DNA of 64,000 bases. Source: Phyllobacterium zundukense. GTDB lineage: Bacteria > Pseudomonadota > Alphaproteobacteria > Rhizobiales > Rhizobiaceae. The stretch covers positions 310,001 through 374,000 of the forward strand of contig NZ_CP017940.1 of the NCBI RefSeq assembly GCF_002764115.1, read 5' to 3'. The notes below the pieces were generated by a model. The model had not been told where the DNA came from, did not search any database, and saw only the letters and a list, made by a program, of their open reading frames with translations. How positions within the stretch are numbered: the stretch's first letter is position 1; each line of letters begins with the position of its first letter. This document shows positions 12,521 to 63,058 of this stretch, in pieces. A program made the position numbers and the translations under genes.

Positions 12521-12591
12521 AGGCAGAGCTGGACCAACGCGAGAGCAGTCTCTTTAACTTGATTGTTGGTGTTAACCAGTTGTTAAGCATT

Positions 12592-12707
12592 ACAATCTAT
12601 AAATTGATCATCCAGTTTTCTGGATTCTTACCAAGTGGTTTGGCCACTTTGTTTGACGCCTCCCTGTTAGACTCCTGAGAGCCGCCCCGTTTTGCGGCTC
12701 TTTTTTT
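12592..12707 (+). ncRNA. AbcR/alpha-r15-like trans-acting sRNA candidate
   Basis: The 380 bases between the Lrp-family gene and rcdA contain no ORF but a compact three-hairpin unit. SL1 is ATCCAG-TTTT-CTGGAT (12610-12625). SL2 is AAGTGG-TTTGG-CCACTT (12633-12649). An unpaired CU-rich stretch with CCTCCC (around 12660) follows, and then a rho-independent terminator, GAGCCGC/GCGGCTC plus seven T (12679-12707). Known AbcR (alpha-r15) sRNAs of Hyphomicrobiales are about 110-120 nt, have this hairpin-hairpin-anti-SD-terminator order, bind Hfq, repress ABC-transporter mRNAs, and often sit next to an lrp-family gene. The 5' end is a guess from length; a weak CTTGAT-17-TGTTAA promoter lies at 12558-12586. 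No tandem second copy was seen. The remaining bases to 12900 hold nothing recognisable except the likely rcdA promoter. Confidence 0.6.
12679..12707 (+). terminator. Strong rho-independent terminator of the AbcR-like RNA
   Basis: GAGCCGC (12679-12685) pairs with GCGGCTC (12694-12700) across an 8-base loop, followed by seven T residues (12701-12707). Confidence 0.85.
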
Positions 12708-29446: not shown

Positions 29447-29454
29447 CCCGGAGT

Positions 29455-29506
29455 GGGCCACCTCTCCCCAACGAGAGGCGTGCTATCTGTAAGGATAGGA
29501 GAAAAC
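29455..29506 (+). promoter_or_regulatory. serC leader RNA motif
   Basis: Two tandem hairpins precede serC. Hairpin 1 is CCTCTC/GAGAGG (29461-29466 with 29473-29478) with a six-base loop. Hairpin 2 is CTATC/GATAG (29483-29487 with 29494-29498) with loop TGTAAG, directly before the ribosome site GGAG. A conserved serC leader of alphaproteobacteria is known (serC family in Rfam), upstream of serC in an operon with serA, which matches this location. Hairpin 2 touches the Shine-Dalgarno region and could control translation. No ligand is established. Exact match to the covariance model was not tested. Confidence 0.6.
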
Positions 29507-60949: not shown

Positions 60950-60984
60950 GAAGAACAGGCCGACTTAACACCGGCCTGTTCTTC
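60950..60984. terminator. Bidirectional hairpin between the VOC genes
   Basis: GAAGAACAGGCCG (60950-60962) pairs with CGGCCTGTTCTTC (60972-60984), closing a nine-base loop. Short, no T-tract. Serves both convergent transcripts. Confidence 0.75.
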
Positions 60985-62531
60985 TATGAAATCAGCCATT
61001 GCCGGACAGCCTCGATGTCGTGCGGTCCGGTTTCATGACCGGCCGATACGCTTTTGGTCGCAATGTCGGCGCCGGCTTTCTTTAATTCCGCTTCGAGCGC
61101 GGGCGCGTGTGCCCCAAAGAGGTCGTGGTCGCCGGTGACGGCAAGAATTCTCGTGTCCCCGAGATCAGCTTCCGGCGTTTCTTTGAGAACCTTCGTTGCC
61201 CGCAAAAGAACTGCTTTGCGAACCAAGCCTGGATGCAACTGCATCATTGCGGCAAGCAGGTTCGCGCCATTGGAATAACCGAGAAAGGCCGTCTGCTGGA
61301 GATCGAGTCCATAGGCCTCGACCGCGCCCTCAATGAACGCGGCAAGTGCCTCGGCTTCGGAGCGAATGTCCTTCTGGTCGAAGCTGAGTGGCCCAAAACG
61401 CCGGAACCAGCGGGCCGAACCTTCTTCATTGCTGCGCCCGCGCAGCCCGATCAACGTTGCATCGGGCGCCACCTTTGCAGCGAGAGGTATAAGACTGGCT
61501 TCATTACCGCCGGTTCCATGCAGGAGGACCAGCGTTTGTCCGTTTGGTTGGTCTGGCGTGTAGACCCGATGAATGAAGGGAAGTTCGCGATAGATGAAGC
61601 GCTCTTCCCTCGGAAGACCGAATTGCGGCAGCATCACTTTCAGGTTTTCTGCTTCCGCGGCGAAATGCGGCGGGATGAACAGCCGGGAACCGAGAGTTTC
61701 CGGTTCCTCGTCGATCAGCATGCCGGGGCCATCGGTCGCCATTTCGAACAGTGTGCCGCCGGGCTCGCGCACATAGATGGAATGGAAATATTTGCGGTCA
61801 TGCATTGCTGTTGCATCTGCACCTTCCGCTATCAGACGATCATAGGTTGCGTTGACTTCTGGAATATCCGCAGCGCGAAAGGCGATGTGGTCAATCGTCC
61901 CGGTGCCGGGTGCGGAACTCCAGAAGCCCGTTGCATCGCGAACGTCGACACAATCACCGGATGCTGAAACCATTCTTGTGATCGTCTCGCTTTGATCGCT
62001 GGCGGTGTATGAGAAATAACTTTCGAGGAAAGTACATGTTTCCTGGGGTTTTTCAGTGAGGATCGTTGCACCGCGAATATGCCGTATCGCATCAGCTGCA
62101 GGAATTCCGTCGCTAGGCCAGATATCTCCGGCCTTGACGCTTTCCGACCCCACAAGTTTCACGATGACGCCGTCTGGATCGAAGAGGCGAACAACCGGCT
62201 CGCCGAATTCCTGTGCCGGCCCTGATGTTGCGACGTTGAATTGCAGGGCGCGGGTCAGCCAGAAGCCGATGCTTTCGGGTGCGATAGCCAGCGCAATCTC
62301 ACTGGGCTGTCCATAGCCGACACGGCCGGGTGAGCCATCTTCCCAAACAAGAAAGGTAATGAGCGATCCAGGTGTGCCGGTCCCATCTCCATACAAAAGG
62401 TGGAGCTGGGTCGCATCCTCGTAACCACCCGTTTGCTTGACGAGACGCAGACCGAGGAAGCCGACATAGAAATCGACGTTTTCCTGCACCTTGCGCGTGA
62501 TCAGTGTGATGTGGTGGATACCGCCCGCCAT
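60984..62531 (-). CDS. Fused VOC-family dioxygenase and alpha/beta-hydrolase (MhqO-MhqD-like)
   Basis: A chain of 515 residues. Residues about 1-305 are a double VOC ring-cleaving dioxygenase (MAGGIHHITLITRKVQENVD, second half DHIAFRAADIPEVNATYDR). Residues about 310-515 are an esterase of the phospholipase/carboxylesterase (MhqD/YodD) type with the oxyanion loop VLLHGTGGNEAS, nucleophile serine in LGYSNGANLL, Asp in TGDHDLFG and His in AGHETGPHD. In Bacillus these are separate genes (mhqO and mhqD) induced by quinones; here they are one protein. GGGAGA lies six bases before the ATG. It converges with a paralogous VOC gene. Confidence 0.85.
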   Translation of the reverse strand: MAGGIHHITLITRKVQENVDFYVGFLGLRLVKQTGGYEDATQLHLLYGDGTGTPGSLITFLVWEDGSPGRVGYGQPSEIALAIAPESIGFWLTRALQFNVATSGPAQEFGEPVVRLFDPDGVIVKLVGSESVKAGDIWPSDGIPAADAIRHIRGATILTEKPQETCTFLESYFSYTASDQSETITRMVSASGDCVDVRDATGFWSSAPGTGTIDHIAFRAADIPEVNATYDRLIAEGADATAMHDRKYFHSIYVREPGGTLFEMATDGPGMLIDEEPETLGSRLFIPPHFAAEAENLKVMLPQFGLPREERFIYRELPFIHRVYTPDQPNGQTLVLLHGTGGNEASLIPLAAKVAPDATLIGLRGRSNEEGSARWFRRFGPLSFDQKDIRSEAEALAAFIEGAVEAYGLDLQQTAFLGYSNGANLLAAMMQLHPGLVRKAVLLRATKVLKETPEADLGDTRILAVTGDHDLFGAHAPALEAELKKAGADIATKSVSAGHETGPHDIEAVRQWLIS

Positions 62532-62615
62532 AAATGTCTCCCGTCTGTCAGTCTTCGACTGTTACGAGGAAAGGGTGAGGGGTGCAATGCTGCCATGCGG
62601 CGAGGCTATGGTCCA

Positions 62616-62733
62616 AAAAACAACACCCACCGCGGGAGGAGGTGCGGTGGGTGCTATTTGTAAAGACCGGCTGGGAGGGAGGAGTGCCGGTCTTTAGACG
62701 TCCGTGGCTTGGGAGGAGGAGTACCCCGGACGT
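62616..62733 (-). ncRNA. Tandem CCUCCUCCC-loop hairpins downstream of the DUF1127 gene (cuckoo/CcsR-like RNA)
   Basis: Read on the minus strand, three hairpins follow the DUF1127 gene. C: ACGTCCG stem (62698-62704 with 62727-62733). B: 11-bp stem (62661-62671 with 62686-62696). A: 10-bp stem (62624-62633 with 62644-62653). The loops of A and C contain CCTCCTCCC, and that of B contains CTCCTCCC. T6 follows hairpin A (62615-62620 read from the minus strand), so A doubles as a rho-independent terminator. DUF1127 genes followed by CU-rich-loop 'cuckoo' (CcsR-type) sRNAs are known in Rhodobacter and Hyphomicrobiales, where they are co-transcribed and stress induced. The loops resemble the anti-Shine-Dalgarno sequence. 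Confidence 0.8.
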
Positions 62734-62746
62734 GAATTATATTCGA

Positions 62747-62896
62747 TTACTGAGCCGAAGCGGCCTTCTTGGCGACGAAGGAGATATCGCCGCGGGAGAT
62801 GCCGAGGTCATTCAGTTCACGTGCGGACAGGCGGCTGAGTTCCGTGACGGTGTCACGATAGCGGCGCCAGTTATTGTAAGAGCGGATCAGATTCAT
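62747..62896 (-). CDS. DUF1127 small protein (YjiS-like)
   Basis: A 49-residue protein encoded from ATG 62896 to TAA 62747. The pattern NNWRRYRDTVTELSRLSARE, then LNDLGISRGDI, is the DUF1127 core. AGGTGAG lies 5-7 bases before the ATG. In Rhodobacter the homologue CcaF1 is an RNA-binding protein made from the same precursor as CcsR sRNAs; in Agrobacterium DUF1127 proteins influence metabolism and surface traits. Here the three CU-rich hairpins follow directly. Confidence 0.93.
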   Translation of the reverse strand: MNLIRSYNNWRRYRDTVTELSRLSARELNDLGISRGDISFVAKKAASAQ

Positions 62897-63058
62897 TTCA
62901 CTCACCTATAAGTTCTTGTTTGTTGGATCATTTCTCGATCGGTGAGCTGGATATAGTGAACGGCTGGCGAAACTTGCAGTGACGTTTTTGCATAGCTGCT
63001 TTGCAACGAACTGGGGGATCAATCAGGCGGAATCTGGGCGCTCAAACTAATGCCACAA

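What the first reader, a model, noticed from the sequence alone, without database searches (positions are those of the whole stretch)
62611..62896. DUF1127 gene followed by three tandem CCUCCUCCC-loop hairpins (cuckoo/CcsR-like sRNA locus)
The minus strand shows a 49-codon DUF1127 gene and, within 130 bases downstream, three strong hairpins each exposing CCUCCUCCC or CUCCUCCC in the loop, with the last one followed by T6. Loops of this type mimic the anti-Shine-Dalgarno sequence. The same arrangement defines the CcsR/'cuckoo' RNA locus of Rhodobacter, where the DUF1127 protein and sRNAs are co-transcribed and act in stress and C1 metabolism. Here three units appear; whether they form one or several mature sRNAs, and what they target, is open.
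Basis: partly seen in the sequence, partly recalled or inferred. Interest (0 to 1): 0.75.

Follow-up and report, generated by a model that had tools for sequence, protein, structure and literature searches.

The report
DUF1127 gene carrying ar14 small RNA
In a soil bacterium close to Phyllobacterium, a gene for a tiny protein is followed by a known type of small RNA whose three loops can cover the ribosome-binding sites of other messages; the locus is a known kind, but the DNA in front of it looks like a switch already known from related genes in other bacteria.

Summary
A 49-codon DUF1127 gene (62747-62896 with stop, minus) is followed, 7 bases after its stop codon, by an RNA of three hairpins with CUCCUCCC in each loop. 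Rfam names it ar14 (RF02344), 95.6 bits against a cut-off of 58.8; the Rhodobacter CcsR1 model fails its cut-off (25.8 against 65.3). ar14 is the NfeR1 family of rhizobia, part of the "cuckoo" group; DUF1127 beside such RNAs is the described CIN1 locus. So: a new member of a known kind, in a Phyllobacterium-like genome. Stems covary while the loop cores stay fixed. Best reading: a VtlR/LsrB-activated message makes a small protein and, from its 3' end, an ar14 RNA that covers Shine-Dalgarno sequences, with a bias to transporter genes. Seven searches of the held library showed no paper naming VtlR or LsrB with DUF1127 and cuckoo, CcsR or NfeR1. No transcript data exist here.

The parts
62747..62896 (-). 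DUF1127 gene, 49 codons plus stop
   Evidence: PF06568, 60 bits against cut-off 23.3; 96-98% identical over 49 residues in 4 relatives, 3 of them named Phyllobacterium
62618..62739 (-). ar14 (cuckoo-type) RNA, three hairpins
   Evidence: Rfam RF02344 95.6 bits, model 1-123 complete; fold z = -7.35; covariation
62698..62733 (-). hairpin 1, loop with CCUCCUCCC
   Evidence: fold; 9 of 10 stem pairs with changes on both sides among 20 sequences, 88.0% of cells paired
62661..62696 (-). hairpin 2, loop with CUCCUCCCUCCC
   Evidence: fold; 3 of 11 pairs changed on both sides, 4 never vary, outermost pair missing in 15 of 20
62618..62659 (-). hairpin 3, loop with CCUCCUCCC, intrinsic-terminator-like
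   Evidence: fold; 100% of lettered cells paired, 11 of 16 pairs never vary
62615..62620 (-). run of six T at the end of the third hairpin
   Evidence: sequence
62989..63003 (-). VtlR/LsrB-type box CAAAGCAGCTATGCA (reverse complement TGCATAGCTGCTTTG fits GCAT-N3-TG-N3-T)
   Evidence: conserved in the ortholog alignment; same consensus in 63 of 80 named relatives; one of 3 exact genome matches to TGCATNGCTGNNTTG; consensus from PMC7486931
62974..62979 (-). -35-like CTGCAA, 17 nt before the -10 (inferred)
   Evidence: same element at the same spacing in the own paralog; not listed by the generic scan
62951..62956 (-). -10-like CTATAT (inferred; start of transcription then near 62944)
   Evidence: CTATHT lies 30-75 nt before the ATG in 55 of 80 relatives, against 116 of 4193 control windows

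Best explanation
The locus is one transcription unit: a VtlR/LsrB-type LysR regulator binds the box at 62989-63003 and activates a promoter at about 62979-62951; the message encodes a 49-residue DUF1127 protein and ends in an ar14 RNA. The 3' part (about 120 nt) is released by an RNase (RNase E in the Rhodobacter analogue) or acts as part of the message. Its three loops pair with G-rich Shine-Dalgarno sequences (such as GGGAGGAG), hide them from ribosomes and so turn down many genes, ABC and TRAP transporters above all. Shown here by sequence: gene, hairpins, covariation, box, promoter-like elements, target-class bias. Inferred: regulator, co-transcription, processing, silencing.
For: RNA family: ar14 95.6 bits over the full model. 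Structure: 13 of 37 pairs with changes on both sides, covariation score 0.276 against 0.166 in shuffles (0 of 500 reach it) and at most 0.074 when slid. Unit: 7 nt between stop codon and RNA; promoter-like sites inside the gene are not kept in the paralog group (my reading); TCCTCCC in the 250 nt downstream of 78 of 80 relatives, two or more in 76 of 80. Regulator: consensus box in 63 of 80 within 200 nt upstream against 63 of 1954 control windows, in 60 of 80 between -125 and -75 against 45 of 7585 control windows of 50 nt; in the own genome, within 250 nt upstream, exact only before the 2 of 10 DUF1127 matches that have ar14; a trxB-LysR-AbcR locus with the exact box at -61 before AbcR. Precedent seen in passages: VtlR binds the atu1667 promoter and activates its Brucella homologues, which are DUF1127 genes; LsrB activates NfeR1; NfeR1 silences through its loops. 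Targets: among genes with GGGAGGAG before ATG, 10 of 22 are ABC or TRAP transporter parts, against 1 of 23 with AAAGGAGA (Fisher p = 0.0017).
Against: No RNA or binding data from this organism. 17 of 80 relatives lack the exact box within 200 nt, and 9 of 80 lack even a one-mismatch version between -125 and -75; among the 17 are 4 Mesorhizobium loci (L089, L092-L094) with three motifs downstream but, by my reading of the DNA, another DUF1127-like gene end upstream. 2 of 80 (L074, L080) have the gene but no TCCTCCC, and both have an exact box. 5 of 7 ar14 matches in the own genome stand without DUF1127 (the seventh, L007, is below the cut-off). Only 1 of 3 AbcR (ar15) matches has the exact box. 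The generic sigma-70 scan lists no site at 62979-62951, but one at 62901-62873 (1 found, 0.5 expected), and a 9 of 12 site lies at 62812 inside the gene. PMC7486931 saw no LsrB effect on AbcR in S. meliloti, PMC8844928 did. The target bias rests on the first 30 of 55 sites per set and one control pattern, and holds for any ar14 copy, not this one.
Confidence: 0.68

Rival explanations
1. The hairpins serve mainly in cis: the third is the terminator of the DUF1127 gene and the others protect its 3' end; no trans-acting RNA is made from this copy.
For: Hairpin 3 is terminator-like and the most constant part (100% of lettered cells paired, 11 of 16 pairs invariant). In S. meliloti only one of six NfeR1 copies was reliably detected (PMC7143759 passage).
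Against: A terminator does not need three loops of constant core on changing stems; the promoter region is conserved.
Confidence: 0.17
2. The RNA has its own promoter inside the DUF1127 gene and is expressed apart from it.
For: A 9 of 12 match to CTTGAC-N17-CTATAT at 62812 and a 9 of 12 match to TTGACA-N17-TATAAT at 62901-62873. Of the ar14 copies without DUF1127, L004 has an exact box at -62 and L005 a one-mismatch box at -54, so ar14 copies can have promoter regions of their own.
Against: Both elements inside the gene are lost in the paralog group (my reading); the conserved promoter-like region is before the gene.
Confidence: 0.1
3. The hairpins are first of all a binding site for the DUF1127 protein encoded just before them, in an autoregulatory or maturation circuit, rather than a silencer of other messages.
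For: CcaF1, a DUF1127 protein of Rhodobacter, binds RNA and takes part in maturing the CcsR RNAs from its own message (PMC10253847 passage).
Against: Small DUF1127 proteins of Agrobacterium bind PhoR, and no evidence of RNA binding was found for Salmonella YjiS (PMC12501420 passages); not tested here. Compatible with the best explanation rather than excluding it.
Confidence: 0.1

Closest known systems
ar14 / NfeR1 (Rfam RF02344) of Sinorhizobium meliloti
   Same: Three hairpins, CCUCCUCCC-type loops, variable stems, several copies per genome, LsrB-type box upstream of the transcription unit
   Different: NfeR1 is described with its own promoter and transcript of about 120 nt; here the RNA follows a DUF1127 gene and seems to share its promoter
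CcsR1-4 with ccaF1 in Rhodobacter sphaeroides (CIN1 locus; Rfam RF02791 CcsR1)
   Same: Small DUF1127 gene followed by CcsR-type hairpin RNAs in one unit
   Different: CcsR1 model not met (25.8 against 65.3 bits); Rhodobacter uses an RpoHI/RpoHII promoter and four sRNAs; protein 71 against 49 residues
VtlR-activated small-protein genes atu1667 (Agrobacterium) and BAB1_0914/BAB2_0512 (Brucella)
   Same: Small genes behind a VtlR box of the same consensus; the Brucella ones are called DUF1127 genes in PMC12595884
   Different: The passages seen describe them as protein genes; PMC7486931 says it is unknown whether atu1667 makes a small protein or acts as an RNA. Their 3' ends in those strains were not examined here

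Membership tests
ar14 (RF02344) | covariance model at or above the gathering score | tested here: met
   95.6 against 58.8 bits, full length 1-123
ar14 (RF02344) | three hairpins, each with an unpaired anti-Shine-Dalgarno motif; stems variable | tested here: met
   (loop 2 is CUCCUCCCUCCC, not CCUCCUCCC)
ar14 (RF02344) | expressed as an RNA of about 120 nt that silences mRNAs | not testable with these tools
   no RNA data; only the target-class bias
CcsR1 (RF02791) | covariance model at or above the gathering score | tested here: not met
   25.8 against 65.3 bits
CIN1 locus (DUF1127 plus cuckoo RNA) | small DUF1127 gene directly upstream, same strand | tested here: met
   7 nt from stop codon to RNA
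CIN1 locus (DUF1127 plus cuckoo RNA) | co-transcription and RNase E maturation | not testable with these tools
   inferred from Rhodobacter
VtlR/LsrB regulon | box GCAT-N3-TG-N3-T upstream of the promoter | tested here: met
   62989-63003 minus
VtlR/LsrB regulon | regulator gene present beside trxB and AbcR | tested here: inconclusive
   L186: thioredoxin reductase end, LysR-type protein of 314 residues, ar15 RNA; the LysR subgroup is assigned by position only
VtlR/LsrB regulon | binding and activation | not testable with these tools
   no binding data

The most novel reading that the evidence does not exclude
The small DUF1127 genes that VtlR/LsrB activates in Phyllobacterium, the Brucella/Ochrobactrum group and relatives are two-product genes: a small protein and a cuckoo-type RNA from the same message, so that VtlR/LsrB drives a whole battery of anti-Shine-Dalgarno RNAs (AbcR1, NfeR1-like copies and the DUF1127 3' ends), and part of the effects ascribed to the DUF1127 proteins may come from the RNA.
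Probability: 0.5. Interest if true: 0.6.

Novelty: new member of a known kind. Interest (0 to 1): 0.38.

Why it matters
The RNA and its pairing with DUF1127 are known. The link to the VtlR/LsrB box joins two open points in one testable question: what the VtlR-activated DUF1127 genes do, and whether atu1667-type transcripts act as protein or RNA. It also warns that deleting such a gene together with its 3' end may remove two products.

Tried and rejected
CcsR1 membership: rejected, model not met. Chance: the single motif is common, the structured triple is not. Own promoter inside the gene: 9 of 12 sites exist but are not kept in the paralogs (my reading). RpoH against RpoD: undecided. One-mismatch boxes are too common to be evidence alone (842 of 7585 control windows). 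The NCBIfam scan gave no family for the DUF1127 protein, and for the LysR protein none of the 25 families shown (of 55) reached its cut-off. Five papers asked for are not held (PMC4615179 on the cuckoo family, 10.1093/nar/gkab146 on CcaF1, 10.1128/JB.02475-14 on CcsR, PMC6112010, PMC7585064); what is said of them comes from passages in other papers. The S. meliloti tetracycline paper PMC12218461 (abstract and passages) describes another way of controlling a DUF1127 gene, a leader with an upstream ORF; not pursued.

Rows left out of counts: of 30 loci per target set, ORFs under 60 aa were dropped (8 of 30 and 7 of 30; L230 and L231 are one site), longer ones were cut to 400 aa; L184 (an MFS fragment below its cut-off) was not counted as ABC/TRAP. 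Only the first 30 of 55 sites of each set were read. The covariation alignment used 20 sequences: the window and 19 of the 80 named loci, hand-picked among close relatives with regularly spaced hairpins (L031, a paralog-group member with a changed second loop, was left out), so it leans towards well-kept copies; the shuffle test does not correct for relatedness. The 80 named loci and the unnamed genus genomes may include the same species twice.

Full report
What is there. On the minus strand a 49-codon DUF1127 gene ends with its stop codon at 62749-62747 (PF06568, 60 bits). Seven bases further on begins an RNA of 122 nt (62739-62618) that Rfam recognises over its full model as ar14, RF02344, 95.6 bits against a gathering score of 58.8. 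It folds into three hairpins (-57.6 kcal/mol, z = -7.35, 0 of 200 shuffles as stable), the first stem starting 13 bases after the stop codon, with CUCCUCCC in each loop (CCUCCUCCC in the first and third), and ends in six T (62620-62615). The gene's closest named relatives are in Phyllobacterium (98% identity), and 20 of 20 genomes searched in the window's genus, the own one included, hold ar14 above the cut-off.

More than chance. CTCCTCCC alone occurs 5 times in the window against 1.9 expected, so the motif alone proves little. The structure does: on 20 aligned sequences (window and 19 hand-picked relatives) 94.3% of cells pair, 13 of 37 pairs show changes on both sides, and the covariation score of 0.276 is reached by 0 of 500 shuffles (mean 0.166) and falls to 0.074 or less when partners are slid; the number of further pair types is reached by 4 of 500. 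Not every pair holds: one pair of hairpin 1 is unpaired in 11 of 20 and the outermost of hairpin 2 in 15 of 20. Hairpin 1 has most of the change (9 of 10 pairs), hairpin 3 little (11 of 16 pairs never vary). The TCCTCCC core is invariant in loops 1 and 3 of the 20, and CCTCCC in loop 2, while some loops are shortened around it (L019, L020, L022). Constant loops on variable stems are the published mark of the family (PMC10746234 and PMC3927594 passages).

Family. The Rhodobacter CcsR1 model does not reach its cut-off (25.8 against 65.3), so the RNA is filed as ar14, not CcsR1. The wider grouping is the cuckoo family, and small DUF1127 genes next to CcsR-like RNAs were labelled CIN1 locus (passage in PMC10253847). 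The own genome has 7 ar14 matches, 6 above the cut-off, and 10 DUF1127 matches, 9 above the cut-off; two are paired, this one and C1:1549504. In a sample of 150 genomes of the order, the own one included, 46 have a match and 22 one above the cut-off; 0 of 14 control genomes have any.

Relatives. Of 80 named loci with the closest DUF1127 genes, 78 have at least one TCCTCCC in the 250 nt downstream and 76 have two or more; L074 and L080 have none; CTCCTCCC was found in the 250 nt upstream of 0 of the 80. These are the nearest relatives of this protein, not a sample of all DUF1127 genes: in the own genome only 2 of 10 are followed by ar14.

Upstream. Aligning the orthologs (8 plus the window) and the paralog group (9 plus the own copy) shows a conserved block about 110 to 90 nt before the ATG and a CTGCAA-N17-CTATAT (window) or CTATCT (own paralog) promoter-like pair. 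The window's block, CAAAGCAGCTATGCA, reads TGCATAGCTGCTTTG in reverse and fits the VtlR consensus GCAT-N3-TG-N3-T given for Brucella and Agrobacterium (PMC7486931 passage); a Brucella motif is quoted as CAATGCAGCCATGCA (PMC12595884 passage), 13 of 15 the same by my comparison. Counted from the inferred start near 62944 the box lies at about -59 to -45; in the S. meliloti AbcR1 promoter it lies at -61 to -49. The consensus is found within 200 nt upstream in 63 of 80 relatives, against 63 of 1954 control windows of the same size from the same loci. Box and two or more motifs go together in 60 of 80, motifs without exact box in 16, box without them in 3 and neither in 1. In 29 of 29 loci titled Brucella or Ochrobactrum both are present (my count); the strains in which VtlR was studied were not among them. 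In the genus set, 27 of the 28 newly fetched, best-scoring ar14 loci have DUF1127 just upstream, and 26 of those 27 have the exact box; lower-scoring copies were not fetched. In the own genome the exact consensus lies within 250 nt before the 2 ar14-linked DUF1127 genes and before none of the other 8. The narrower pattern TGCATNGCTGNNTTG has 3 exact matches in the genome, one of them this site. A generic sigma-70 scan does not list the inferred promoter, as its hexamers differ from the E. coli consensus.

Regulator. The own genome carries, in order, the end of a thioredoxin reductase, a 314-residue LysR-type protein and an AbcR (ar15) RNA with the exact box at -61 (L186); the other two ar15 matches lack the exact box. 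The order is the one given for vtlR/lsrB in PMC7486931. The assignment is by position, not by a subfamily model. The literature disagrees on one point: PMC7486931 saw no LsrB effect on AbcR RNAs in S. meliloti, PMC8844928 did.

Targets. 55 places in the genome have GGGAGGAG 3 to 12 nt before ATG, against 10 for the reversed pattern. Of the first 30, 22 open a frame of 60 codons or more, and 10 of these 22 are ABC or TRAP transporter parts; for another strong ribosome site, AAAGGAGA (55 against 12 reversed), the figure is 1 of 23 (Fisher p = 0.0017; among proteins with a Pfam match 10 of 18 against 1 of 15, p = 0.0038). This agrees with NfeR1, whose predicted targets are mostly transporters (PMC7143759 passage). 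It speaks for what any RNA with these loops would hit, not for this copy.

How it most likely works. One message from a VtlR/LsrB-type promoter gives a small DUF1127 protein and, from its 3' end, an ar14 RNA that covers G-rich ribosome sites. Steps shown: parts, structure, box, target-class bias. Steps inferred: binding, co-transcription, release by RNase E, silencing. The protein's part is open: CcaF1 binds RNA and helps mature its own 3' sRNAs, whereas Agrobacterium small DUF1127 proteins bind PhoR, and CcaF1 can replace them there.

Novelty. The RNA, the loops and the pairing with DUF1127 are in print. The seven searches of the held library listed no paper that names VtlR or LsrB together with DUF1127 and cuckoo, CcsR or NfeR1. 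Nearest: PMC10746234 (LsrB with NfeR1, one mention of cuckoo), PMC12595884 and PMC11975290 (VtlR/LsrB with DUF1127), PMC12501420 (DUF1127, the sRNAs behind ccaF1, and LsrB only in a reference title). Supplements and papers not held, including those on the cuckoo family and on CcsR, could not be searched, so this is absence from one library's main texts only. All papers were seen as abstracts or passages, none in full.

Noticed in passing
window 12563-12707 +: A second Rfam sRNA, BjrC1505 (RF02356), 78.3 bits against 50.
   Followed up: no
window 29451-29503 +: serC leader (RF00517), 65.6 bits against 35.
   Followed up: no
L006 (own genome C1:2879620-2879737, minus): Another ar14 copy lies directly after a phasin gene (TIGR01985) with no exact box within 330 nt: possibly another copy borne by a 3' UTR, with a different host gene.
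   Followed up: partly
window 62618-62659 minus; L001, L004: The third, terminator-like hairpin is nearly identical between paralogs in one genome and in the aligned relatives while hairpins 1 and 2 diverge; constraint or gene conversion.
   Followed up: no
L127, L128: Two DUF1127-like pattern matches in tandem before one ar14, with one exact box upstream of both; similar upstream gene ends in 4 Mesorhizobium loci.
   Followed up: no
G088:C59:204875-205349 and G155:C1:2116034-2116511: Three ar14 matches in a row in two genomes of the same family: arrays of whole ar14 units.
   Followed up: no
L056, L059: A record titled Bacillus subtilis (JAHREI01) carries loci like those of Pseudochrobactrum; probably a wrong title.
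   Followed up: no
window 60984-62531 minus: A 515-residue protein with two glyoxalase stretches and an alpha/beta-hydrolase stretch follows directly downstream of the RNA.
   Followed up: no
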